Below are positions 1 through 16,057 of a stretch of DNA of 16,085 bases, piece by piece; the stretch's first letter is position 1; each line of letters opens with the position of its first letter. The stretch is from Candidatus Hydrogenedentes bacterium CG07_land_8_20_14_0_80_42_17 (GTDB lineage: Bacteria; UBA8481). Made by a program: the position numbers and the translations under genes. The stretch covers positions 1 to 16,085 of the forward strand of contig PEWQ01000077.1 of NCBI GenBank assembly GCA_002780065.1. Reading direction: 5' to 3'. The notes beneath the pieces are model-generated. The model saw only the letters and a program-made list of their open reading frames with translations, searched no databases and had not been told where the DNA came from.

Positions 1-95
1 AGAACGTGTGAAATAATTGAAAAATGAAAATTGGAAAAATAAAATTTTCAATTTGCACTTTCCAATTTGCAATTTCAAATAAATAACATACCAGC
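1..95. repeat. Direct repeat copy A flanking the restriction-modification island
   Basis: AT-rich sequence that recurs in the same orientation at 3133-3221. The two copies agree apart from one substitution near the start (T9 versus C3141), a 7-nt deletion in copy B and a few changes near the end. It holds an internal inverted repeat, AAATTGGAAA with TTTCCAATTT. Because the match begins at base 1, the copy probably extends left of the window. It has no coding potential and looks like a dispersed non-coding repeat. Confidence 0.85.
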
Positions 96-276: not shown

Positions 277-930
277 CTATTGGTTGTTGAATGAATTGAT
301 TAGCTCGAAGTCATCTTCCGCAATACCCAAATCTTCGCGGAGCAGTTCTTCTTCAGACTTGATGCGAGTCCCGCGCGGTTTCCCCTTCTTCGACGACTTC
401 ATTTCCGGAAAGGTGCCGAACCTCGCCTTGTGAGTAAGAATCTCAGCCAATCTATCTTCATCTTCGGAGACAATGAAGTAAGGCGCCATGCTTGATGCGA
501 GTGAATTTGACACCGGATTTCGAGAACTGATAACAATGAGTGAAAATAGCACATAGTTCTGGGCGGGGCGAAATGGTCGAATTTTGAACCACAGCGAGAA
601 CGGTCGATCTTTTGGATAATACCCAGGGATATGCGCCGCATCGCGTGGTTTTGTCCGCCGGGTCTCGACAATTTTTGCGTAGTGAGTTGTGAACCTCCCG
701 CGCGAACATTTTACCATGTAAAGCAGAGGGGCAGAACGTGATTTGCTTCGCCGATTCAGGTCTTCGATAAGAGTATGCGAAAGCGTCTTGTAGCCAAGCT
801 TTCCTAACCACACGTATCCAGATTTTCGCGCAATTTCGTTATGTGATTTGATAGTATCTGCCGTACCAGCAAAATTGTCCGCATATCGCAAGACGATATG
901 AATAGGCCGATCACGATCTACACGAATCAT
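277..930 (-). CDS. Unrecognised protein encoded downstream of the EcoRV-type endonuclease
   Basis: A 217-residue protein, third gene of the restriction-modification set, starting 30 bp after the endonuclease stop. I do not recognise the family with confidence. There is no signal peptide or membrane segment. The first ~170 residues alternate short hydrophobic and basic stretches (GYVWLGKLGY, PFSLWFKI, MAPYFIV), which suggests a small beta-rich domain. The tail is charged (KSSKKGKPRGTR, then an acidic EEELLREDLG). A PUA/EVE-like nucleic-acid reader or an accessory factor of the restriction system would fit, but that is inference only. The ATG at 930 has no strong ribosome-binding site, only GAG at suitable spacing. 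The frame is open back to the endonuclease TAG, so translation may depend on the gene upstream. It ends in TAG. Confidence 0.7.
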   Translation of the reverse strand: MIRVDRDRPIHIVLRYADNFAGTADTIKSHNEIARKSGYVWLGKLGYKTLSHTLIEDLNRRSKSRSAPLLYMVKCSRGRFTTHYAKIVETRRTKPRDAAHIPGYYPKDRPFSLWFKIRPFRPAQNYVLFSLIVISSRNPVSNSLASSMAPYFIVSEDEDRLAEILTHKARFGTFPEMKSSKKGKPRGTRIKSEEELLREDLGIAEDDFELINSFNNQ

Positions 931-960
931 GTTAAAATACTCGACGGTGAGTGCATACAG

Positions 961-1749
961 CTACTTTTGCCCCCTGGCCTTCCACCGCGCATAGTCTGAC
1001 AAATTCTTATAGGGCGGCTTTGATTCGATAGCTCGTGCCATATCAATCGTCAAATAGTTCATCCAATAGTCATCAAATACTTCTTCTCCAAGAGTAGAAA
1101 AGGAGCCTCGCCCGTTAAGCAAGTCGTCAACATTCTGAACAGACCCGATATTTTTTGTGTTTCCGCTTCCTGGGCGATCTATTGCAATTCGCCATTTATC
1201 CTGCACAAGGAACTGAAATTGTCGGACGACCGAGGCGATACTAGACAACTCGCTCAGCTTGTACACCCGCCGCTCGTCGTTAACCTCATCAAGGCGACTG
1301 TAGATAACGCCCAGAACCAGGTTCGCAGAGTATTGGCCGTACGGAAAAGTTACATTTTTGGTCGATTCGCGCTCCCGAAAATATCCAGTGAATGCACCGA
1401 GTGTAAATCCGTTTACAGTTGTAGCTGACGTCCGATATGTACTCTTGAGGTCAACCGCGATTTTTGCTCCATCGCCGGCTATGAATGAAATATCCGGATA
1501 ATGATTTTGATGTTCGCTAAGCACCATCTTGTAACCGTGTGTCTTGGCGAAGTGGCAGACTGTCGGAAATATCATTAGCTCGATGATTTTGGACACGACC
1601 TTTGTGTCGCAGGAAATTGTATAGATGTTCTGAAATACGTCTATGAAGCCCTTTACCGTCCATTCGCCATCAGGCGTCGCAAGGGTTTTCATGAATTCAG
1701 CGAAATACTTACGCAGATCTTCCTTGAATTTCTCTGTGGCTGCGCTCAT
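961..1749 (-). CDS. EcoRV-type type II restriction endonuclease (predicted GATATC)
   Basis: This 262-residue protein resembles R.EcoRV (about 245 residues) over its whole length. The shared core runs from SCDTKVVSKIIEL through QNHYPD, KIAVDLKSTY, FTLGAFTGY, QDKWRIA and GSGNTKNIGS to YARWKARGQK at the C terminus. The PD...DxK nuclease site is intact: D86 (in HYPD), D100 and K102 (in VDLK), with E57 at the place of EcoRV E45. The recognition-loop stretch GSGNT-NIGS matches EcoRV, whose loop reads the outer bases of its site, so the likely target is GATATC with blunt cutting (inference). The ATG follows the methyltransferase TAG with no gap. GGAAGGA about 8 nt upstream, inside the methyltransferase gene, is a good ribosome-binding site. 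It ends in TAG. Confidence 0.93.
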   Translation of the reverse strand: MSAATEKFKEDLRKYFAEFMKTLATPDGEWTVKGFIDVFQNIYTISCDTKVVSKIIELMIFPTVCHFAKTHGYKMVLSEHQNHYPDISFIAGDGAKIAVDLKSTYRTSATTVNGFTLGAFTGYFRERESTKNVTFPYGQYSANLVLGVIYSRLDEVNDERRVYKLSELSSIASVVRQFQFLVQDKWRIAIDRPGSGNTKNIGSVQNVDDLLNGRGSFSTLGEEVFDDYWMNYLTIDMARAIESKPPYKNLSDYARWKARGQK

Positions 1750-2829
1750 CTATTGATTCCTTCCGATGAATAGCACTTCATCACTACTTCCATTCGTAGA
1801 CAATACATATTTGTAACCCTTTCGATAGTGAACATCTACTTGGGCGTATAATTCCGACAGCATCGCTCGCAACGACTCGATGGACGGTATCCCGTCGCTC
1901 CTATATGAAACTGCGAGGGTCGAGTGCCTGAAGCGCTCAAATAGCGCTTTGAAGGCTCTCTCAATAGCACTGGCATTCGACCACGCGTTGCGCTCTCTGC
2001 GCAGTTTGCGATGCTTTGATGTCCGGTCAATCAACGAATCCCATGTATCATATTCACAGAGTCCCTCCAGAAAATGGTAAAACTCCCTGTAGTCCACACC
2101 GGTTTTCTTTGACGAAATATATGGTGTGTCGACGTATATGAGATCGTAATCACCAATAACGTTTATTGCGTCCATATTAAGAACCTTGTTATCCCGCCCG
2201 TTGTCAAACACCGCAACATTAGCCTCTCGAACAAATTGCCGAAACCATTCGTGAAATGGCCGGTCCCAGGTTGCCTTGTTGCCAAAACTGCGCTCAACCT
2301 CCGCAGTGCGAATATATAGGTTGCACCGATGAAACAGGTTGTAAGGCCTCTTGATAGTGCACGACTGCGCAAGAGCGAAGAACGCAATGGCCTGCTTGTA
2401 GGGATTTTCCATAGCACGAATATTCTGGATGACGGTATCAATCCATCGATTCTCATCATCCAAAAAGTAGATGCCGGAAAAGTTCGATTCGACGACCGAT
2501 GAATATTTGATCTTCCGATGGCGCGTCAGAAGGTAATCGACATCATCCTCAGATAGCGTCACATCTCGATTTTCGATTAGCGCACGCGCATAAACGGCGT
2601 TGAACTTGAGAAGGTCGTTATACGTTACGCATTTTCCCTCTTGCTTCAAGCGATAGGCGATTGCACCCGTTCCACCGAAAGCGTCTAGGCAGCTATCGAA
2701 TTCGATTTCCCTCAGGACGTCCCAAATCCAATCCGCAAGCTTAGCCTTGCTCCCTTGGTATCGAGTTGACGGGAATTCCCTCGTCAAGTCCGGGAAAAGT
2801 GACAGTGCTTGAGCGACGCTTCTAACCAT
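1750..2829 (-). CDS. D12-class N6-adenine DNA methyltransferase, partner of the EcoRV-type nuclease
   Basis: 359 residues. It is expected to methylate adenine in the site cut by the adjacent nuclease and so protect the host. Motif X (RYQGSK, residues 23-28) is followed by SAM-binding motif I (DAFGGTG, 49-55), the order of the alpha/D12 group. Catalytic motif IV reads DTPY (234-237) where the usual motif is DPPY. A central insert of about 110 residues separates motif I from motif IV and probably includes the target-recognition domain. The C terminus is complete (KGYKYVLSTNG). The ATG at 2829 has GAGG about 12 nt upstream, a rather wide spacing. It is the first gene of the island and leads straight into the endonuclease (TAG then ATG). 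No separate controller (C) protein is visible upstream. Confidence 0.9.
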   Translation of the reverse strand: MVRSVAQALSLFPDLTREFPSTRYQGSKAKLADWIWDVLREIEFDSCLDAFGGTGAIAYRLKQEGKCVTYNDLLKFNAVYARALIENRDVTLSEDDVDYLLTRHRKIKYSSVVESNFSGIYFLDDENRWIDTVIQNIRAMENPYKQAIAFFALAQSCTIKRPYNLFHRCNLYIRTAEVERSFGNKATWDRPFHEWFRQFVREANVAVFDNGRDNKVLNMDAINVIGDYDLIYVDTPYISSKKTGVDYREFYHFLEGLCEYDTWDSLIDRTSKHRKLRRERNAWSNASAIERAFKALFERFRHSTLAVSYRSDGIPSIESLRAMLSELYAQVDVHYRKGYKYVLSTNGSSDEVLFIGRNQ

Positions 2830-3132: not shown

Positions 3133-3221
3133 AGAACGTGCGAAATAATTGAAAAATGAAAATTGGAAAAATAAAATTTTCAATTTGCACTTTCCAATTT
3201 CAAATATAGTAACATACCAGC
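3133..3221. repeat. Direct repeat copy B flanking the restriction-modification island
   Basis: Same orientation as copy A at 1-95, nearly identical from AGAACGTG to AACATACCAGC apart from a 7-nt deletion and a few substitutions. It carries the same internal AAATTGGAAA/TTTCCAATTT inverted repeat. With copy A it brackets about 3 kb that hold the methyltransferase, the endonuclease and the unknown protein. Confidence 0.85.
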
Positions 3222-8679: not shown

Positions 8680-8925
8680 ATGACAACAATTTCAATTAGA
8701 GACTTTGCGCGAAATGTGACTCGCGTATTGGCCCGTCGTTCCAAAACCGTAGTCACTAGGCGCGGAGAACCCGTTGCAATAGTCGTTCCTTTGCCCTCGG
8801 GAGGTACAGAAGCTTTGGTTCTGAAGATGACTGAAATTTTTCGAAAATCCGGTGTCACTGACTCGGACATTGAACGCGCAGTGAAAGAAGCAAGACGAGA
8901 AATGCATGTTTCGCGTCGTGATTGA
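8680..8925 (+). CDS. Phd/YefM-family antitoxin
   Basis: 81 residues. The N-terminal half (MTTISIRDFARNVTRVLARRSKTVVTRRGEPVAIVVPL) is the typical Phd/YefM DNA-binding domain, which dimerises on operator DNA. The C-terminal half is charged and helical and should wrap and neutralise the toxin. The start is firm: AAGGAGG at 8669-8675 lies 4 nt before the ATG. The toxin gene begins inside its 3' end with a 20-bp overlap, the usual arrangement for co-translated toxin-antitoxin pairs. It probably represses its own promoter through TATGTACATA at 8660-8669. Confidence 0.9.
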   Translation: MTTISIRDFARNVTRVLARRSKTVVTRRGEPVAIVVPLPSGGTEALVLKMTEIFRKSGVTDSDIERAVKEARREMHVSRRD

Positions 8926-9334
8926 TACAAACATTTTTTTCTCTGCGTTTTTGGGAGGAAAGCCGCAAAAAACGGTAATACGAGCGTTACGCAATGACAC
9001 TCTGCTCATAAGTCCCGCCTTGCGCTCTGAGATTTTACGCGTCCCTGCGATGATTTCGGACAAACTTGGTGTTCTTCTCTTCAACGAAGCCGGTGCCTAC
9101 ATCGAAGAACTATTACAACATTTTCAAATGGTCAATGTTCGTCGACATATTGTGCTTTGCCGTGATCCGGCAGATGACTTGCTTCTTTGTCTAGCTGCAT
9201 CAGGAAATGCGGACTTCATTGTGACAGGAGACAAAGATCTTCTTTCTCTTACATCCGAAGAATTGTTGCGTCATGGAGTTCGCGCAAAAATTATTCGACC
9301 TGCAGAGTATCTTGAGATACCGCACGTATCTTGA
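8906..9334 (+). CDS. PIN-domain toxin (VapC-like ribonuclease, COG1569-type)
   Basis: 142 residues with a complete PIN domain: D7 in VIDTN at the start, E42 in RSEIL, D87/D90/D91 in DPADDLLL, and D109/D111 in TGDKDLL. These acidic residues bind metal and cleave RNA in this family. The length and the FSAFLGGKP and CLAASGNADFIVTGDKDLL segments match the COG1569 subgroup of putative PIN toxins. It overlaps the antitoxin by 20 bp. The last residues (EYLEIPHVS) and the TGA stop at 9332-9334 lie inside the first copies of a 19-bp tandem repeat. The natural C terminus may therefore have been altered slightly, although the catalytic core is untouched. Confidence 0.9.
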   Translation: MFRVVIDTNIFFSAFLGGKPQKTVIRALRNDTLLISPALRSEILRVPAMISDKLGVLLFNEAGAYIEELLQHFQMVNVRRHIVLCRDPADDLLLCLAASGNADFIVTGDKDLLSLTSEELLRHGVRAKIIRPAEYLEIPHVS

Positions 9335-9415
9335 GATACCGCACGCATCTTGAGATACCGCACGCATCTTGAGATACCGCACGCATCTTGAGATACCGCA
9401 CGCATCTTGAGATAA
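9307..9415. repeat. 19-bp tandem array made of mini-hairpins
   Basis: The unit CTTGAGATACCGCACGCAT is present five times plus a 9-nt partial copy (9311-9414); the first full unit has GTAT in place of GCAT. Read from 9307, each unit is GTATC-TTGA-GATAC (5-bp stem, 4-nt loop) followed by the 5-nt linker CGCAC. Later copies have GCATC, which still pairs by G-U on the minus-strand RNA. The array starts within the 3' end of the PIN toxin gene. Confidence 0.95.
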
Positions 9416-9589
9416 AGAACATTGAATAATGATTATGGCTAAGAAATTGAGATATGAAAAAATCATTTTTCACTACAGAACACGGACAGGCGCGCATGGG
9501 AGCACACGGAGATAAATTTATTTTTTGCTCAGGCTGAACCCTGCGGCTACCGGTCGAGCGTAATTACTTTTCAATTATTTCACAGCTTC
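9416..9589. other. Non-coding gap between toxin array and repeat copy 2
   Basis: About 175 bp without a credible gene. It contains a purine-rich dispersed-repeat-like stretch (ACGGACAGGCG, CACACGGAG, then an AT run near 9511-9527) and GGCTGAACCCTGCGGCTACC at 9532-9551. Its 3' part is the inverse of the palindrome family seen at 188-199. No terminator with a clear stem and T-run was found. Confidence 0.5.
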
Positions 9590-9665
9590 ATTTATTCGGC
9601 CGTGCGGCTCCGAAGAAGAACGAGATATCGCTCTTCCGAGGCATGCTCCGATGTCTCGACGAAAA
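9590..9665. repeat. 76-bp direct repeat, copy 2 (3' end of bioF-like gene)
   Basis: Second copy of 8490-8565, 75 of 76 identical. Here the minus strand is read: it supplies the last 23 codons and the TAA stop of the bioF-like gene. It contains GATATC at 9623-9628. Confidence 0.95.
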
Positions 9666-10764
9666 GCCTGTGTCCTGACTGCACAGAGAGTCTTAATCTG
9701 GAAGTGCCTTTTGGAACAGTAGGAGGTCTAATAGGAAGTGTAAGACATCCAGCCGCCTCGAGTTTATTTGAAAGCTCGATCGTTTCTTTTTCGCCTCCGA
9801 TCACAATCGGAATTATCGGAGTCTTTGAAGTTTGAATTCCTATCTTTTTGCAGAACGCAGAAATATTTCTTCTCAAGTTCACAACTCGTTCATTGTTTTT
9901 AGCTAAAATATCGAGTGCCGCATTTGCCGCGCCTACGGCAGCCGGATTCAACCCGGTAGTATAAATAAAAGCCGGAGATTTTTGAATGAACAGATCGATG
10001 ATAGCTTTATCAGCCGCAAGAAAGCCGCCCTGACTGCCGAGAGCTTTGGATAGAGTACCCATCTGAATAACATATTCAGATGGCTTAATTCCAAAATGTG
10101 CGAATATTCCTTCGCCGTTCGGCCCCAAAGTTCCAGTGCCGTGAGCGTCATCAACGAGAAGAAATGAATCAAACTCCTCAGCAATATTCAATATTTCCGG
10201 CAAAGGAGCAATATCACCGTCCATCGAATGCACTCCGTCTAGAATAATCAAAAGTCGTTTAGAGCGATCGCGCAATTTTTTCAGAGCTCGAGTAAGACCT
10301 TCCAAATTATTTTTTCTAAAAAAAATTGTTTTACTTCCAGATAAGCGTGCTCCCGAAATCAGACATGCGTGAGAACTTTTCTCTATGACTATTCCGTCAC
10401 TTCGACCTACCAGAGCTACAATTGCGCTCAAAGCGGCAGTAAAACCTGAAGTAGTCACAAGCGCCCGTTCAGTATTTTTTAATTCAGCCAGTTTAGATTC
10501 CAGCAACGTAATCCTAGCTGATGTGCCGGCAATCAATCTTGAAGAACCCGCGCCTGCGCCATCTTCTTTAACAGCCGCGACAGCGCCCTCGATTACTAAA
10601 GGATCAGTAGCAAGCGAAAGATAATTATTCGAAGTAAGATTTATCATTTGTCTGCCATCTACTTCGATGTAAGGCGCTGAACCTCTATCAAAGATTCGCA
10701 AACGTCTCTTCAATTCAAATGGTATTTCTTCGAGTTGTTTTTTAATTTCTTGATTGCCTTTCAC
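9592..10764 (-). CDS. bioF: BioF-type alpha-oxoamine synthase (PLP-dependent)
   Basis: 390 residues, fold type I PLP enzyme. H132 (SSHACL) stacks on the cofactor, DDAHGTG (205-211) binds it, and K240 in GTLSKALGSQGGF forms the Schiff base; ARLSGSKTIFFRKN is also typical. The family condenses an amino acid with an acyl thioester and releases CO2: 8-amino-7-oxononanoate synthase (biotin), glycine C-acetyltransferase or sphingoid/autoinducer synthases. The motifs look closest to BioF, but the substrate is not certain. It is the last gene of a four-gene operon and overlaps the ketosynthase by 4 bp. Oddity: residues 368-390, after RLRLSVQSGHRL, come entirely from the 76-bp repeat and do not resemble the usual BioF C terminus. 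Confidence 0.85.
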   Translation of the reverse strand: MKGNQEIKKQLEEIPFELKRRLRIFDRGSAPYIEVDGRQMINLTSNNYLSLATDPLVIEGAVAAVKEDGAGAGSSRLIAGTSARITLLESKLAELKNTERALVTTSGFTAALSAIVALVGRSDGIVIEKSSHACLISGARLSGSKTIFFRKNNLEGLTRALKKLRDRSKRLLIILDGVHSMDGDIAPLPEILNIAEEFDSFLLVDDAHGTGTLGPNGEGIFAHFGIKPSEYVIQMGTLSKALGSQGGFLAADKAIIDLFIQKSPAFIYTTGLNPAAVGAANAALDILAKNNERVVNLRRNISAFCKKIGIQTSKTPIIPIVIGGEKETIELSNKLEAAGCLTLPIRPPTVPKGTSRLRLSVQSGHRLFVETSEHASEERYLVLLRSRTAE

Positions 10765-11834
10765 TTTTCCGCCTCTATAACGAGCGCCGCCATTTGCCCT
10801 CCAAAGCCATAGGAGAGTATAATACCAATACTTTTCTGTAATCTCATATTATTCTGCAAAATGCAATCGCACTGGCATTCAGGGTCTATATCTTCCAATC
10901 CAAAGCTCGCCGGCGCCATGCCGTTTTTCAAAAATTCAATAGTAATTATTGTCTCGACTGCGCCCGCGGCTCCAAGGCAATGCCCTGTCAAAGCCTTTGT
11001 TGACGAAGCAGGAATAAAAATGTTTTTTTTGTCGAAAATAATTCGCAGCGCCTTTGCTTCGGCAATGTCATTCTGTTTCGTTCCGGTTCCATGCAGATGA
11101 ATGTATGCAAGATCCTGTTTTTTTATTTCAGCATTAGTCAAAGCAAGCTGAATCAATTCCACAATATTGTGTTCATTCTCTTTTACCGAAACAGGATTTG
11201 AATCAGATTGCATCATTGCCCAACCTAAAATTTTTGCCACAGATTTTATTCCTTCCGACACAGCATCTGCTTCTCTCATCAAGAGCGCAACAGCTCCTCC
11301 TTCCGCCGGAACAAATCCATCGCGATTTTTATCGAATGGACGCGGTCGGGTTTTAGAAATAACTCCCATTCTCTTAAATCCTCCGACTACGAAAGGGTGC
11401 AGAGTTGCTTCTGCGGCTCCTGCAAGGCATATATCGCATTCATCGTTAGTTAAGAGCATTGCTCCGCGCACAAACGAGAATAATCCGGTAGCGCATGCGG
11501 ATATATTTGTCACTACCGGCCCTTTGACATTATCAGGCACGATTCGATTCGAAATAAAATCCGCCCATGCTTTAGAAGTTATTTTTCCTGAATCGAGTGA
11601 GCTCAAAATTCCTTGAAGTCCAGGTTTCGAAACTGTCACAGTCGAACCGGTTCGAATCGGATTGAACGAAAACGGAATTCTTCCAATAACTTTTTCAGAA
11701 AGTTTTATCGCAAGAAAATTTGATCTGTCGCTTTCGGAATCGAATTCCAATCGCCTTGGTCTGCAATCAGTTATTAACTCCCGACAGGCAATTTCCATTT
11801 CATAATCAACGATGACAACGTTCGATTTTACCAA
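10761..11834 (-). CDS. FabF-type beta-ketoacyl synthase, short N terminus
   Basis: 357 residues. The catalytic triad of condensing enzymes is intact: C114 (NISACATG), H248 (HLHGTGT) and H285 (KALTGHCLGAAG), with K280 and a C-terminal SYGFGGQ. It should extend an acyl-thioester by decarboxylative condensation with a malonyl unit. The active Cys lies ~50 residues earlier than in FabF (Cys163), so the N-terminal part is reduced; the usual opening VVITGLG strand is not evident. A divergent or pathway-specific ketosynthase is therefore more likely than housekeeping FabF. It overlaps the SDR gene by 7 bp and the bioF-like gene by 4 bp, implying coupled translation. No acyl carrier protein or dehydratase lies beside it in the window. 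Confidence 0.85.
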   Translation of the reverse strand: MVKSNVVIVDYEMEIACRELITDCRPRRLEFDSESDRSNFLAIKLSEKVIGRIPFSFNPIRTGSTVTVSKPGLQGILSSLDSGKITSKAWADFISNRIVPDNVKGPVVTNISACATGLFSFVRGAMLLTNDECDICLAGAAEATLHPFVVGGFKRMGVISKTRPRPFDKNRDGFVPAEGGAVALLMREADAVSEGIKSVAKILGWAMMQSDSNPVSVKENEHNIVELIQLALTNAEIKKQDLAYIHLHGTGTKQNDIAEAKALRIIFDKKNIFIPASSTKALTGHCLGAAGAVETIITIEFLKNGMAPASFGLEDIDPECQCDCILQNNMRLQKSIGIILSYGFGGQMAALVIEAEK

Positions 11835-12514
11835 GAGGAAAGTCTTCCGTCAGGAGAAAATATTTGCCCTGTGACTCCTTCCATCTTCGATAAAGCGAGT
11901 ACCATTTGAGCCACATCGTCTATTGAACCTAATCTTTTAAGAAGATGCTCGTTTCTGGCAAATTCCATTCCTTTAGGTGAAGTCTGTCCCATATCCGTAT
12001 CGAGATATCCGGGCAGAATGGAATTGACTCTAACATTTGGAGCAAGTTCCTTTGCTGAGGAAAGTGCTAATCCAAAAAGCCCTGCCTTTGATGCAGTATA
12101 AGCCGCAGAGCCTATAGCTCCGCGCTTTCCTAGTATCGAAGAGATTATTACAATACTGCCTTTCGATTCAGTTAATAATTCGAATAAAGCTCGAATACCA
12201 AAAAATATTCCGTTCAAATTTACAGCTATACTGCGATCCCAATCCTCTTCAGAGGTCGAGATTAATAACTCGTTAACAATCATTCCGGCATTTGCGACAA
12301 AGAGATCCAATCGACCGTATTTTGCTCGTATTTCTTTTTCCGCTCGAAATGAAGTTTTAGGATCGGCAACATCTCCTTTAATTATCAGCGCATCGTCAAA
12401 TCCTGAAATCGGAGTTTTATTGACGCCCAAAGCCAATTCGTATTCTTCAGATAATACCTCAGCAATTCTATTTCCCAATCCTTTAGCGGCTCCGGTAATG
12501 TAAGCAACTTTCAT
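11828..12514 (-). CDS. Short-chain dehydrogenase/reductase, FabG-like
   Basis: 228 residues, a classical SDR. The Rossmann nucleotide motif is TGAAKGLG (7-14), with NAG (75-77), catalytic Ser in IISSILG (125-126), and YTASK (Y139, K143). Length and the PGYLDTDM segment after the active site match FabG-type 3-oxoacyl-ACP reductases using NADPH. Between an aminotransferase and a ketosynthase, its most likely job is reduction of the keto group made by the ketosynthase (inference). It overlaps the aminotransferase gene by 4 bp (ATGA) and the ketosynthase gene by 7 bp. Confidence 0.88.
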   Translation of the reverse strand: MKVAYITGAAKGLGNRIAEVLSEEYELALGVNKTPISGFDDALIIKGDVADPKTSFRAEKEIRAKYGRLDLFVANAGMIVNELLISTSEEDWDRSIAVNLNGIFFGIRALFELLTESKGSIVIISSILGKRGAIGSAAYTASKAGLFGLALSSAKELAPNVRVNSILPGYLDTDMGQTSPKGMEFARNEHLLKRLGSIDDVAQMVLALSKMEGVTGQIFSPDGRLSSW

Positions 12515-13365
12515 AGTTTACTCTTTTGATTGCATTCAGATTCTATTCGCTCGTCATAGAGCGAATATATTTTTTTGAGAATAGGATGTTGAGTTTGAAA
12601 TTTTCTTCCCTCATATAAAGAAACAGGAATAGGACCGGTTGATGTGCTCGAGATAAAAAGTGCGTCCGCATTAAGCAAATGTTTTTCCGCAATATCTGAT
12701 TCTTCAATTTTGATAAGCTCACATAGAATCGAGCATGTAATGCTGGGGAGAATCTTTTTTCTGAATGGCATTTTAACTTTTCCATTTTTTATCAGATAAA
12801 GAGTTGATGCCGAACACTCTGAAATTTTTCCTTCGTAGTCTTTCATCACAACCTCATAGGTGTTTGAAAAGATTCTTGCGAGCGCCATTGCGCCGAGAGA
12901 AATAGTTTTTACAACGTTAATGAAAGGAAGTGGTCGTGGGATTACGGAATTTGAAAGCGTGACTCCTTTTCTTCTCAAAGATGCAATATTTGGAACAGCG
13001 CGGGTGACAGCATAAACAGTCGGAGCTGTAGCGGAATCGAATTTATAACCGCCCTTGCCAATACCGCGAGTGATCGTAATTCTTACCACTGCATCGTTCT
13101 CGGTGTTTTTACAAACTAGATTTTCTAAAATAATTCGCAATTCGCTTTTATCAAATGGAATTGAAATTTTTGTTTCCGACAACCCTTGAAACAGCCGCGC
13201 CGCATGTCGGTCAAAAGAAAAAAGTTTTCCGTGATAAGTACGCAGAGTATCGAAGACTCCGTCTCCAAGAGTAAATCCTCTATCATCGGGCGAAATTTTC
13301 GCCGCGGATTTAGATATGAATTTTCCATTCAAATACACAATCAAATGTTCTTTTGTTTTTTTCAT
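12511..13365 (-). CDS. Class IV (fold type IV) PLP aminotransferase
   Basis: About 284 residues from the ATG at 13365; an in-frame ATG at 13389 would add 8 residues. YLNGKFISK, then DRGFTLGDGVFDTLRTYHGKLFSFDRHAARL, is the standard N-terminal domain of the branched-chain aminotransferase / D-amino-acid aminotransferase / aminodeoxychorismate lyase family. The PLP lysine is probably in NVVKTISLGAMALAR, and KISECSASTLYLIKNGKV is the family's ECS/EGS-type loop. Members cannot be told apart reliably by sequence: transamination, or PabC lyase for folate, are both possible. It heads the operon with the SDR, ketosynthase and BioF-like genes (4-bp overlap), so it may supply or modify an amino compound there. 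No clear ribosome-binding site precedes either ATG. Confidence 0.85.
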   Translation of the reverse strand: MKKTKEHLIVYLNGKFISKSAAKISPDDRGFTLGDGVFDTLRTYHGKLFSFDRHAARLFQGLSETKISIPFDKSELRIILENLVCKNTENDAVVRITITRGIGKGGYKFDSATAPTVYAVTRAVPNIASLRRKGVTLSNSVIPRPLPFINVVKTISLGAMALARIFSNTYEVVMKDYEGKISECSASTLYLIKNGKVKMPFRKKILPSITCSILCELIKIEESDIAEKHLLNADALFISSTSTGPIPVSLYEGRKFQTQHPILKKIYSLYDERIESECNQKSKL

Positions 13366-13389
13366 GATATTAGATATGATATTAAGCAT

Positions 13390-13430
13390 AGAAAATAAAA
13401 TTCAAAGAGAATTTATCGGAAAATGTTTTT
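13390..13430. promoter_or_regulatory. Short divergent intergenic region
   Basis: Only about 41-65 bp separate the divergent aminotransferase operon (-) and the methyltransferase-like gene (+). Both promoters must sit here or extend into coding sequence. On the minus strand, TAATAT repeats (AATATCATATCTAATATCATG) lie just before the ATG at 13365. No full consensus promoter could be assigned for either direction. Confidence 0.4.
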
Positions 13431-14042
13431 ATGACAACAAAAGGAATAGGATTTCACTTTAGAGGAACAATTGGAGGAATTGCTATCGGCATATTTACTG
13501 CGATTGCACTCTTTTCAACTCCTGAAGTATCTGAAGGAACTTGGTGGGATGTTGTTACAGACGGCTTTGCATGGGCGGCAATGGTAGTGGGAATCGGTTT
13601 GAGATTTTGGTCAACATTGTTTCTTGCAGGCAGAAAAGAAACAGCAGTTGTTTCAGACGGACCCTACTCAATCTGCCGTAATCCTCTTTATCTCGGATCT
13701 TTCTTTATCGCAATCTCGGCAGGATTATTTTTAGAAAGCGTAACGTTTACAATCGGAGTAGGCCTTTCCATTATCTTCTATATGCTGGCTACAGTGCCTG
13801 CCGAAGAAAGGTATTTGAAAAGTGTTTTAGGAAAAGAATACGAGGATTATCTAAAGAGAGTTCCAAGTTTTATTCCAAACTTTTCTCTTTATCGAGAGCC
13901 GAAGAAACTTGAGGTTGATCTCATAGGATTAAAAAATGAAGCTCTAAGAGCAGGACGATGGATATGGCTGCCGATCTTTACCGAGGCGATAGCTATGCTC
14001 AGGCTAGAACCATGGTGGCCTCATTTTTTCAGGCTTCCTTAA
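13431..14042 (+). CDS. Isoprenylcysteine carboxyl methyltransferase / phospholipid methyltransferase-like membrane protein
   Basis: 203 residues with about five membrane helices. The SAM-binding end of the ICMT/PEMT family is clear: DGPYSICRNPLYLGSF (RNPLY), then PAEERYLKSVLGKEYEDYLKRVPSFIP, with the EE pair and the YxxYxxxVPxFIP ending. Such bacterial proteins methylate small lipophilic or lipid-linked substrates at the inner membrane; the actual substrate is unknown. A further ~45 residues follow the core, ending in WIWLPIFTEAIAMLRLEPWW, probably one more membrane-associated helix. The ATG at 13431 lacks a good ribosome-binding site. The DoxX-family gene follows 21 bp downstream and is probably co-transcribed. 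Confidence 0.8.
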   Translation: MTTKGIGFHFRGTIGGIAIGIFTAIALFSTPEVSEGTWWDVVTDGFAWAAMVVGIGLRFWSTLFLAGRKETAVVSDGPYSICRNPLYLGSFFIAISAGLFLESVTFTIGVGLSIIFYMLATVPAEERYLKSVLGKEYEDYLKRVPSFIPNFSLYREPKKLEVDLIGLKNEALRAGRWIWLPIFTEAIAMLRLEPWWPHFFRLP

Positions 14043-14063
14043 AATTTGCAGTTGGAGGATGAA

Positions 14064-14474
14064 ATGGATAAGAAAGAATGGATAATGGGATCGTTTCTGA
14101 CACGTATGGCTTTAGGTTTGCTTTTTTTCTTTGCAGGACTTAATAAATTTATGGGGCCTGGTCCCGAAGGTTTTATGAATTCTATTCTCGATCAATTTTC
14201 AAAAACATTTCTACCTCCGTTCAGCCTGAAAATATATGCGTATCTCCTTCCATTCTGCGAGGTGGGACTTGGGCTATTTTTAATTGCGGGATTGTATAGA
14301 AAAGCAGTTTTATTTTTGACAGGACTGTTACTTTTGTCGCTTGGGTTCGGCCAGATTTTATTAGGAAATCACGACACAGTTGCGAGCATATTTCTTTACG
14401 TATTCATGGCAGGATGGACTCTGAATCAAACTAACGACAGATTGACTTTAGACGAATATTTAACAAAAAAATAG
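14064..14474 (+). CDS. DoxX-family membrane protein
   Basis: 136 residues with four hydrophobic helices. The opening ALGLLFFFAGLNKFMGPGPEGF and the later LLPFCEVGLGLFLIAGLYRKAVLFLTGLLLL are the DoxX signature (helix 1 with a G-x-x-K-F motif, then P-x-x-E-x-x-x-G). DoxX-like proteins are associated with quinol or redox partner functions, but most have no assigned job. The start is decided by GGAGG at 14054-14058, 5 nt before ATG 14064, not by the upstream TTG at 14046. It follows the ICMT-like gene closely. Confidence 0.85.
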   Translation: MDKKEWIMGSFLTRMALGLLFFFAGLNKFMGPGPEGFMNSILDQFSKTFLPPFSLKIYAYLLPFCEVGLGLFLIAGLYRKAVLFLTGLLLLSLGFGQILLGNHDTVASIFLYVFMAGWTLNQTNDRLTLDEYLTKK

Positions 14475-14501
14475 AAACAACCTGCGCAATTCTGCCGATA
14501 A
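14474..14501 (+). promoter_or_regulatory. Possible sigma-28 (FliA) promoter of flgL
   Basis: GCCGATAA at 14494-14501 is an exact match to the -10 consensus of the flagellar sigma factor. GAAA at 14474-14477 lies 16 bp upstream as a partial -35 (consensus TAAA with ~15 bp). Transcription would start about 6 nt before the flgL ATG at 14514, leaving essentially no leader and no ribosome-binding site. Flagellar class III genes are the usual targets, which fits. Confidence 0.55.
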
Positions 14502-14513
14502 TTGTAATGGTAT

Positions 14514-15791
14514 ATGCGTGTAACAGAATCTAAAATGAAACTTATTACGTTAGCGGCGATGCGAAGTACGCAGGATGAAAATGCCGCTGCTCAATCCAAG
14601 CTGGCATCCGGCAAAGAAATTTACAAGCCGTCTGATGATCCTCAAAGGTTCGTAACTTCCGCGCGGCTAAAGTCTGTGGTAAAAAGTCATGACCAATATC
14701 TTCGCAATATAAGCGACGCAAAACGGTTCATCGACAACAGCGAAACAGCAGTGACGAAAATAGTCTCATTACTTCAAGAAACAAGAATGCTTATGGTAAG
14801 AGCGAGCAACGAAACATTTACGACGACCGACTTACAACTTATGGGAGACGAGATGCGCCAGCAACTTGACGGACTGATACAATTTGCAAATTCCGAAACA
14901 GTAGACGGAAAGATATTCGGAGGAACAAAGACGGATGTCAATCCATTCGAAGTTAAGAGAGACTCCGACGGGAACATTATCGATGTCATATACCGCGGAA
15001 ACAGAACAAAGATGAAGCGCACTATTTCCGAAGATTCAACGATCGACGTTAATTATATCGGTTCTGAACTTTTTCAAGTAGATAAAGATTGGATGGAATC
15101 TTCAGCAGGCGCGTCAGTAAATCCAATTTTGGCGCCTGACGAAAAACTATCGGCATATTTTACAAATCAAGAGCCCAAGCAGGGATATTTCACTGTGCAG
15201 GATAAGAGAGTTTGGTTCGACATAGAAAATGATTCATTGAATGATATAGCGGCAAGAATAAACGACAAAGTTCCGGAAGCAAATGCGACTGTAGAAACTC
15301 CTGTAGGCGGAAGCGGATACAGATTGAGAATAGAAACTAAAAATGAAGATCAACTAATTATTAAAGATGAAGGCGCCGGAAGATTTTTTGAAAGGATGCA
15401 GATGACTGACGGAACGGCTAATTCACCGGCGAATATGGGTTCCGGCAATCAAAATGATCTTTCTCTTTTCAACGTAATAATTAACACAATAGGAAATTTA
15501 GAGCGAGGAGAATACTCAGAGATAAGTAACACTCGAATTGCGGAATTATCCAGAGGTCTTGACCGAATGGATAAGGTAATAGGCGAAATTGGCGGACAAG
15601 CGGCGAGACTGGAAAATACTGAAAGCAGAGTAAAAGATATTCTCTATTTATCAAAGAAGAGCATTTCTGAGAACGAGGATTTAGAATACGGAGAAGCTAT
15701 CACACGATTGAGAATGTCCGAATTCAAGCTTCAGCTCGCAATCAGCGCGGCTCAAAATGCCCCGGGCCAGAATCTTCTAAAATTTCTATAA
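14514..15791 (+). CDS. flgL: Flagellar hook-associated protein 3 (FlgL)
   Basis: 425 residues against ~300 in enterobacterial FlgL. The N terminus MRVTESKMKL... ASGKEIYKPSDDPQRFVTSARLK is the flagellin-like D0/D1 coiled coil. The C terminus (GGQAARLENTESRVKD ... RMSEFKLQLAISAAQNAPGQNLLKFL) is the matching D1/D0. The middle (~residues 150-320) is enlarged. It includes WFDIENDSLNDIAARINDKV, which resembles a flagellin hook-IN type segment. It is the junction protein between hook and filament, exported by the flagellar secretion system. No flgK is present upstream. The gene starts right after a candidate sigma-28 promoter. The ATG at 14514 gives the family-typical MRVT start, so the ATG at 14535 is less likely. 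Confidence 0.92.
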   Translation: MRVTESKMKLITLAAMRSTQDENAAAQSKLASGKEIYKPSDDPQRFVTSARLKSVVKSHDQYLRNISDAKRFIDNSETAVTKIVSLLQETRMLMVRASNETFTTTDLQLMGDEMRQQLDGLIQFANSETVDGKIFGGTKTDVNPFEVKRDSDGNIIDVIYRGNRTKMKRTISEDSTIDVNYIGSELFQVDKDWMESSAGASVNPILAPDEKLSAYFTNQEPKQGYFTVQDKRVWFDIENDSLNDIAARINDKVPEANATVETPVGGSGYRLRIETKNEDQLIIKDEGAGRFFERMQMTDGTANSPANMGSGNQNDLSLFNVIINTIGNLERGEYSEISNTRIAELSRGLDRMDKVIGEIGGQAARLENTESRVKDILYLSKKSISENEDLEYGEAITRLRMSEFKLQLAISAAQNAPGQNLLKFL

Positions 15792-15835
15792 AGTAGCTTA
15801 CTAAGTTTATTACTGGAGTTTCCCTAAATCTTTTG

Positions 15836-15937
15836 CAACGGCACAATGGTGTCTACGGCACAATAGTGTCAACGGCACAATAGTGTCAACGGCACAATAG
15901 TGTCAACGGCACAATGGTGTCAACGGCACAATGGTGT
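15836..15937. repeat. 17-bp tandem array made of mini-hairpins
   Basis: Six head-to-tail copies of CAACGGCACAATAGTGT. The only variation is A/G at one loop position (AATA or AATG) and one CTA for CAA. Each unit is GGCAC-AATA-GTGTC, a 5-bp stem with one G-U pair and a 4-nt loop, plus the 3-nt linker AAC. It starts 45 bp after the flgL stop. Confidence 0.95.
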
Positions 15938-15965
15938 CCCGCATCCCCACCCTTCCACTTTGGAG

Positions 15966-16057
15966 GCACAGGCGCTACGCGTCAATGGACGCCCTCGCGT
16001 CAATGGACGCCCTCGCGTCAATGGCCGCCCTCGCGTCAATGGACGCCTCGCCTGTGC
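15966..16057. repeat. 18-bp tandem array within an inverted repeat
   Basis: Four copies of CGCGTCAATGGACGCCCT (15978-16048); the third has C for A, and the last lacks one C. Each unit is GCGTC-AATG-GACGC, a perfect 5-bp stem with a 4-nt loop, plus the 4-nt linker CCTC. The array is enclosed by GCACAGGCG (15966-15974) and its exact reverse complement CGCCTGTGC (16049-16057). GCATGCTTATCCA follows at 16065-16077. Confidence 0.95.

What the first reader, a model, noticed from the sequence alone, without database searches (positions are those of the whole stretch)
9307..16048. Three tandem arrays with different sequences share one mini-hairpin design
The arrays at 9307-9415, 15836-15937 and 15978-16048 have unit lengths 19, 17 and 18 bp and unrelated stems. 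Every unit divides into a 14-nt hairpin (5-bp stem, 4-nt loop, 5-bp stem) plus a linker of 5, 3 and 4 nt: GTATC-TTGA-GATAC+CGCAC; GGCAC-AATA-GTGTC+AAC; GCGTC-AATG-GACGC+CCTC. Variants tend to keep pairing (G-U in the 17-mer; G-U on the minus strand in the 19-mer). This suggests one process that amplifies short REP-like palindromes into arrays of 70-110 bp, or a family of elements selected for repeated hairpins, possibly protein-binding or RNA-level. I know of no named element with this architecture.
Basis: seen in the sequence. Interest (0 to 1): 0.72.

Follow-up and report, generated by a model that had tools for sequence, protein, structure and literature searches.

The report
Tandem arrays grown from short hairpins
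In this little-known bacterium, short stretches of DNA that can fold into tiny hairpins have repeatedly been copied into head-to-tail arrays of 15-19 bp units, between genes and even in frame inside essential genes, which makes the genome a good place to ask how minisatellites are born.

Summary
The three arrays are real and the shared design is not chance. I read 1.26 Mb of the 2.39 Mb genome. It holds 76 tandem arrays with 15-19 bp units, in 28 sequence families. Thirteen families have a perfect stem of at least 5 bp, against 1.07 in shuffled units. No other period class shows a significant excess. A same-order relative has 1 such array in 261 kb; 250 kb of E. coli has none.

Half of the in-gene families are hairpin units (7 of 14; about 0.5 expected), and 13 of 14 have in-frame periods (15 or 18 bp). 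Array 1 looks like an amplified native 3' end of a PIN-toxin gene. The MetH array is a 14-residue insertion beside a native motif kept in the relative. Array 3 belongs to a dispersed REP/BOX-like element: a 9-bp covarying outer stem around 1-9 inner hairpins, with 25 single-hairpin copies found.

Best reading: hairpin-assisted slippage repeatedly amplifies local short palindromes, and one palindrome family is also dispersed. A RAYT link, a terminator role and an Rfam identity found no support. The enzymology is untested.

The parts
9307..9415 (+). Array 1: six 19-bp units, GTATC-TTGA-GATAC + CGCAC; sequence found nowhere else in the genome
   Evidence: TRF; sequence; only itself at a significant E-value in the own genome
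9307..9320 (+). Likely native seed palindrome of array 1: GTATCTTGAGATAC, which codes for the (E)YLEI(P) end of the PIN toxin
   Evidence: Array-free PIN homologs end in the same P..(F/Y)L(E) motif (e.g. L183 EPPIFLEKI, L180 VSDFLS), alignment
8906..9334 (+). PIN-domain toxin gene (PF13470, E 2e-13) whose 3' end is the first unit of array 1; its stop codon TGA lies in the second unit
8680..8925 (+). Phd/YefM-like antitoxin ORF upstream of the PIN gene
   Evidence: Pfam PF02604 E 1.7e-4, below the gathering score
15815..15839 (+). Conserved 5' flank of the array 2 family: GGAGTTTCCCTAAATCTTTTGCAAC
   Evidence: A similar flank precedes other copies in L016, L028, L031, L130, and one single-unit copy in L122
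15840..15938 (+). Array 2: six 17-bp units, GGCAC-AAT(A/G)-GTGTC + AAC/TAC
15962..16057 (+). Complete array 3 element: GGAG tag, 9-bp outer arm GCACAGGCG (15966-15974), four inner hairpins, outer arm CGCCTGTGC (16049-16057)
   Evidence: DNA fold z -3.75
15979..16046 (+). Array 3 proper: four GCGTC-AATG-GACGC hairpins with CCTC linkers (the third unit reads GGCCGC in its 3' arm)
14514..15791 (+). Flagellin_N-domain gene (FlgL-like) ending 48 bp before the first hairpin of array 2
   Evidence: Pfam PF00669, E 2.5e-18

Best explanation
A genome-wide mutational process, hairpin-assisted strand slippage, amplifies short local palindromes into tandem arrays. A 12-14 nt palindrome (4-5 bp stem, 2-5 nt loop) folds on nascent single-stranded DNA. 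The primer end re-anneals about one hairpin-plus-linker back, so one extra 15-19 bp unit is copied, and later rounds grow the array. In genes mostly arrays with units of 15 or 18 bp survive, because they keep the frame; between genes 17-19 bp arrays accumulate. Array 1 is such a local event at the end of a PIN-toxin gene. Arrays 2 and 3 are the same kind of expansion inside dispersed REP/BOX-like palindromic elements, whose basic form has one hairpin. Shown here: the hairpin excess, the restriction to 15-19 bp units, a native seed sequence in two genes, homogenisation within each locus, and copy number 1-9 in otherwise similar elements. Inferred: slippage as the agent, the strand involved, and why this genome is so prone to it.
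For: Excess of hairpins only in the 15-19 bp class: 13/28 families versus 1.07 expected; in genes 7/14 versus 0.5-0.6, between genes 5/11 versus 0.44. In-gene arrays are nearly all 15 or 18 bp and lie in housekeeping genes (MetH, SMC, RpoN, ScpA, UvrD, TrpG, HisD, OppF-like), where selection for a hairpin is hard to imagine. Local seeding: array 1's first unit matches the native C-terminal motif of array-free PIN homologs; MetH has a 14-residue insertion SKPRFPSKPRFP.. directly before the native PRFVAG of the same-order relative; the TrpG array falls where solved homologs have a shorter loop. Local growth: linkers match within arrays at 0.595 versus 0.195 after shuffling, maximum 0.32 in 2000. 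Copy-number lability: the array 3 element has n=4 in the window and n=1 about 145 bp further on in the same contig, with the same downstream flank; over 66 elements n runs from 1 to 9. Density: 20 arrays in 646 kb of contigs not chosen for hits, versus 1 in 261 kb of the relative (Poisson P 0.003) and 0 in 250 kb of E. coli.
Against: The dispersed array 3 family is not explained by neutral slippage alone. Its outer stem covaries (AG/CT 25, GT/AC 9, GCA/TGC 1, with no AG/AC or GT/CT element), and its inner variants favour G-T over A-C pairs on one strand (38:9; 18:7 without the commonest variant). That suggests selection on, or templated correction of, the folded strand. Several 17-bp families share the loop AATG, which slippage does not predict. 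Fifteen of 28 families have no 5-bp stem. For 1-6 nt repeats, structure has been reported to limit expansion (PMC7441554). No repair defect was pinned down: MutS and XseA are present; canonical SbcC was not found, but an SbcD-like gene with a large coiled-coil ATPase neighbour is present.
Confidence: 0.6

Rival explanations
1. A single-strand-specific enzyme (Y1/HUH transposase or a relative) recognises hairpins and copies or joins them in tandem, as RAYTs are thought to mobilise REPs.
For: Four Y1_Tnp matches in the genome; the array 3 element is dispersed in at least 66 copies with a conserved GGAG tag and a 9-bp stem; wobble pairs are kept preferentially on one strand while the element shows no orientation relative to genes, as expected if single-stranded DNA of that strand is the substrate.
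Against: No Y1 gene is flanked by these hairpins; one has its own unrelated TIRs. In-gene arrays consist of the gene's own sequence rather than a mobile sequence. Linkers are homogenised per locus.
Confidence: 0.15
2. The arrays are selected as DNA- or RNA-level regulators: repeated protein-binding sites, terminators or mRNA-stabilising hairpins.
For: Covarying outer stem and wobble-preserving variants in the array 3 family; arrays 1 and 2 lie at or just after gene 3' ends.
Against: Of 26 array 3 elements with both neighbours known, 16 are codirectional, 6 divergent and 4 convergent, much like the background of 138/61/33; strand relative to the genes is 7 same, 9 opposite. No Rfam match at the elements. 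The same hairpin bias exists inside essential coding sequences. Stems are only 3-6 bp and arrays 1 and 2 are little more stable than shuffles.
Confidence: 0.15
3. Two unrelated things coincide: an ordinary dispersed REP/BOX-like family, and ordinary minisatellites in genes, with the palindromes in the latter due to codon or composition bias.
For: The dispersed families make up most intergenic arrays (46 of 76 in one family); coding arrays have different stems and loops.
Against: Random in-gene segments of the same lengths and shuffled units give 0.5-0.6 hairpin families where 7 are seen (0 of 1000 trials). Both populations share the 15-19 bp unit, and the other period classes show no excess.
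Confidence: 0.1

Closest known systems
BOX elements of Streptococcus pneumoniae (boxA-[boxB]n-boxC; PMC3049150)
   Same: Dispersed element with paired outer modules around a variable number of tandem inner hairpins; copy number differs between loci
   Different: boxA, boxB and boxC are about 45-60 nt each (own knowledge; boxA/C about 50 nt in PMC3049150); here the arms are 9 nt and the unit 17-18 nt; no sequence relation was looked for
REP elements, GTAG and CGTC superfamilies (PMC3733652)
   Same: The n=1 form is a short dispersed extragenic palindrome with a tag at one end; REPs can be reiterated in tandem in some genomes
   Different: The inner hairpin, not the whole REP, is amplified; the tag GGAG does not fit the GTAG or CGTC consensus; no RAYT with these palindromes at its ends; no preference for gene 3' sides
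Rickettsia and Wolbachia palindromic elements and PARCELs (reviewed in PMC2996958)
   Same: Palindromic DNA in frame within protein-coding genes
   Different: Those are mobile insertions, or 75-nt repeats of one protein motif; here each in-gene array is different, seems locally seeded, and has 15 or 18 bp units
Hairpin-containing VNTRs of Wolbachia wMel (PMC3287509)
   Same: Tandem units with internal hairpins; slippage triggered by the hairpins was proposed there
   Different: Two loci with 105- and 141-bp periods; here 28 families with 15-19 bp units, 13 of them hairpins, across the genome

Membership tests
REP element (array 3 family, n=1 form) | Short, dispersed, high-copy imperfect palindrome, mainly extragenic | tested here: met
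   66 copies in 1.26 Mb, 25 with one hairpin; 9-bp outer stem; four lie inside predicted ORFs, which may be spurious
REP element (array 3 family, n=1 form) | Terminal unpaired GTAG or CGTC tag | tested here: not met
   Conserved tag next to the stem is GGAG; a CGTC lies 2 bp further out in only some copies
REP element (array 3 family, n=1 form) | Cognate RAYT gene flanked by the same palindromes (GTAG class) | tested here: not met
   None of four Y1_Tnp loci has the palindrome at its ends
BOX-type composite element | Two outer modules that pair, around a variable tandem array of an inner hairpin module | tested here: met
   Outer arms covary (AG/CT, GT/AC, GCA/TGC), inner n = 1-9
BOX-type composite element | Homology to streptococcal boxA/boxB/boxC | not tested
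   Unit lengths differ; the array 3 pattern was absent from 84,980 species genomes in an exact two-unit search, but box sequences were not compared directly
Rickettsia palindromic element type | One mobile palindromic sequence inserted in frame in many genes | tested here: not met
   In-gene arrays have unrelated sequences, one locus per family
Slippage-expanded minisatellite | Units derived from adjacent native sequence | tested here: met
   PIN 3' end and MetH PRF motif; two loci only
Slippage-expanded minisatellite | Copy-number variation between strains | not testable with these tools
   No same-species or same-genus genome held; variation was seen only between loci

The most novel reading that the evidence does not exclude
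The lineage has a dedicated activity, or a specific repair defect, that recognises 5-bp hairpins in single-stranded DNA and duplicates them in tandem, so that hairpin amplification is a general engine of minisatellite birth, intragenic repeat evolution and REP/BOX-like element growth.
Probability: 0.12. Interest if true: 0.85.

Novelty: new variant of a known kind. Interest (0 to 1): 0.55.

Why it matters
How a minisatellite starts from single-copy DNA is hard to study because most arrays have lost their ancestor. Here one genome holds single-hairpin and multi-hairpin versions of the same element, arrays in two genes whose native seed can be read off homologs, and a clear structural signature (a hairpin per 15-19 bp unit). 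That makes it directly testable whether short palindromes seed tandem repeats, and whether this adds residues to essential proteins.

Tried and rejected
RAYT mobilisation: Y1 genes found but not linked to the hairpins. Known RNA families: only tRNAs found by Rfam in nine loci. Phage origin: the array 3 pattern is absent from IMG/VR. Wide spread of the family: exact pattern absent from GTDB r220 species genomes and from 40 other genomes, so it is specific to this lineage as far as tested. Terminator or 3'-end role: no positional or strand bias. Loss of mismatch repair or ExoVII: MutS and XseA present. Loss of SbcCD: canonical SbcC not found, SbcD-like gene present; inconclusive in an 87% complete genome. 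Naming the organism by a protein search failed. HisD comparison with the relative was uninformative at the C-terminus, and one periplasmic-binding-protein search in the relative was empty.

Full report
Observation. The window is contig 55 of a 2.39 Mb, 207-contig, 87% complete genome; the only near relative held is one genome of the same order. The organism could not be named.

Genome-wide test. I read about 1.26 Mb of this genome in stretches and 0.26 Mb of the same-order relative. A simple scan for head-to-tail copies found 76 arrays with 15-19 bp units in 28 families; 13 families hold a perfect stem of at least 5 bp with a 2-5 nt loop, against 1.07 in shuffled units (0 of 300 shuffles reach it). 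The other period classes show no significant excess. A first version of the test with Tandem Repeats Finder gave 10 of 23 versus about 1. The relative had one such array in 261 kb, without a hairpin, and 250 kb of E. coli K-12 had none. In contigs not chosen for hits, this genome has 20 arrays in 646 kb.

Two settings. Seven of 14 in-gene families are hairpin units (0.5-0.6 expected), and 5 of 11 intergenic ones (0.44 expected). In-gene units are 15 or 18 bp in all but one case, which is a 17-bp array at the end of a gene. Genes include MetH, SMC, RpoN, ScpA, UvrD, TrpG, HisD and an OppF-like ATPase. Not every one of these arrays is itself a hairpin unit (SMC and RpoN are not). This looks like one mutational bias filtered by reading frame.

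Local seeds. Array 1's first unit is the coding end of a PIN toxin: homologs without arrays end in the same P..(F/Y)L(E) motif, and array 1 has no other significant match in the genome. In MetH the relative reads ETEE-HPRFVAG where this genome reads EANDTSKPRFPSKPRFPSKPRFVAG, a 14-residue insertion made of the neighbouring PRF motif; its 18-bp unit has only a 4-bp stem. In TrpG the repeat falls in a region where solved homologs are shorter. These support amplification of native sequence rather than insertion of a mobile one, in two clear cases and one weaker one.

Array 3 is different in one respect: it belongs to a dispersed element. I found 66 copies of GGAG-GCACAGGCG-(3-4 nt)-[GCGTCAATGGACGC + 3-4 nt]n-CGCCTGTGC, with n=1 in 25 copies and 2-9 in 41. 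The outer arms covary: AG with CT 25 times, GT with AC 9 times, GCA with TGC once, and no AG/AC or GT/CT element. Copies cut short or lacking a 3' arm were not counted as tests. The first search for arms allowed at most one mismatch and so leaned towards pairing; the count did not impose pairing. The next element on the contig, just outside the window (L033 16202), has n=1 and the same downstream flank as the window's n=4 copy. Linkers are the same within arrays far more than between them (0.595 versus 0.195), so arrays seem to have grown after dispersal. Array 2 belongs to a smaller family with its own conserved 5' flank (GGAGTTTCCCTAAA..TTTTG), including a single-unit copy.

Variants. Counting each variant once per array, 38 are G-T, 9 A-C and 13 other mismatches on the AATG strand. 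One variant (T-A to T-G) accounts for 20, and copies share ancestry, so this is suggestive, not a clean test; without it the ratio is 18:7. It points to selection or templated correction on one folded strand. As the elements have no orientation relative to genes (7 same, 9 opposite), single-stranded DNA is a more natural substrate than mRNA, but that is inference.

What it is not. No Rfam family matches the elements. The exact two-unit pattern is absent from GTDB r220 species genomes and IMG/VR, with the caveat that the genome's own records may be left out there. The four Y1_Tnp loci are not bordered by these palindromes.

Mechanism. Hairpin-assisted slippage is an established idea (for example it was proposed for two Wolbachia VNTRs, PMC3287509). 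What is unusual here is how many independent families show it and the narrow unit size, which fits one minimal hairpin plus a 1-5 nt linker. Why this genome is prone to it is open: MutS and ExoVII are present, SbcC was not found but an SbcD-like gene with a large ATPase neighbour was. Structure can also limit repeat expansion (PMC7441554, for 1-6 nt units), so the direction of the effect needs an experiment.

Known kinds. The architecture is BOX-like (PMC3049150), the n=1 form is REP-like (PMC3733652), and in-frame palindromic DNA recalls Rickettsia elements and PARCELs (PMC2996958). Each comparison fails on at least one defining feature tested here or was not fully tested, so I file it as a new variant of known kinds.

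Noticed in passing
window 15-80 and 3147-3205; L033 16149-16186 and 16335-16372: An AT-rich repeat built of heptads (AATTTCC, AATTTGC, CAATTTG CACTTTC) occurs in about 55 arrays in 1.26 Mb and often lies directly upstream of the array 3 element.
   Followed up: partly
window 277-2829, - strand: EcoRV-family endonuclease (PF09233, E 2e-103) beside a D12-class adenine methyltransferase and a PUA-like domain protein: a compact restriction-modification cluster.
   Followed up: partly
L138 11504-12418 and other loci: A Y1 transposase gene between inverted repeats GGGGTCAGGCTTGAACTTTTTTACTTTTT; the repeat occurs alone at several other places, 12 sites in all in 1.26 Mb.
   Followed up: partly
window 15840-16046; L064 3179-3271; L123 853-895; L081 5303-5388: Several 17-bp hairpin families with different stems share the loop AATG (CATT on the other strand). 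I cannot explain this.
   Followed up: no
all 15-19 bp arrays read: Unit lengths 15, 17, 18 and 19 occur, but no 16.
   Followed up: no
L016 15950-19998: An SbcD-like nuclease gene is followed by a 934+ aa ATPase with coiled-coil regions, possibly a YhaO/YhaN-like or SbcCD-like pair.
   Followed up: partly
L071 3341-3494, L073 1-96, L131 1-102, L080 6283-6374: Further tandem repeats of 21-51 bp with palindromic cores such as GGGCAGACC..GTCTGCCC and CGAAC..GTTCG.
   Followed up: no
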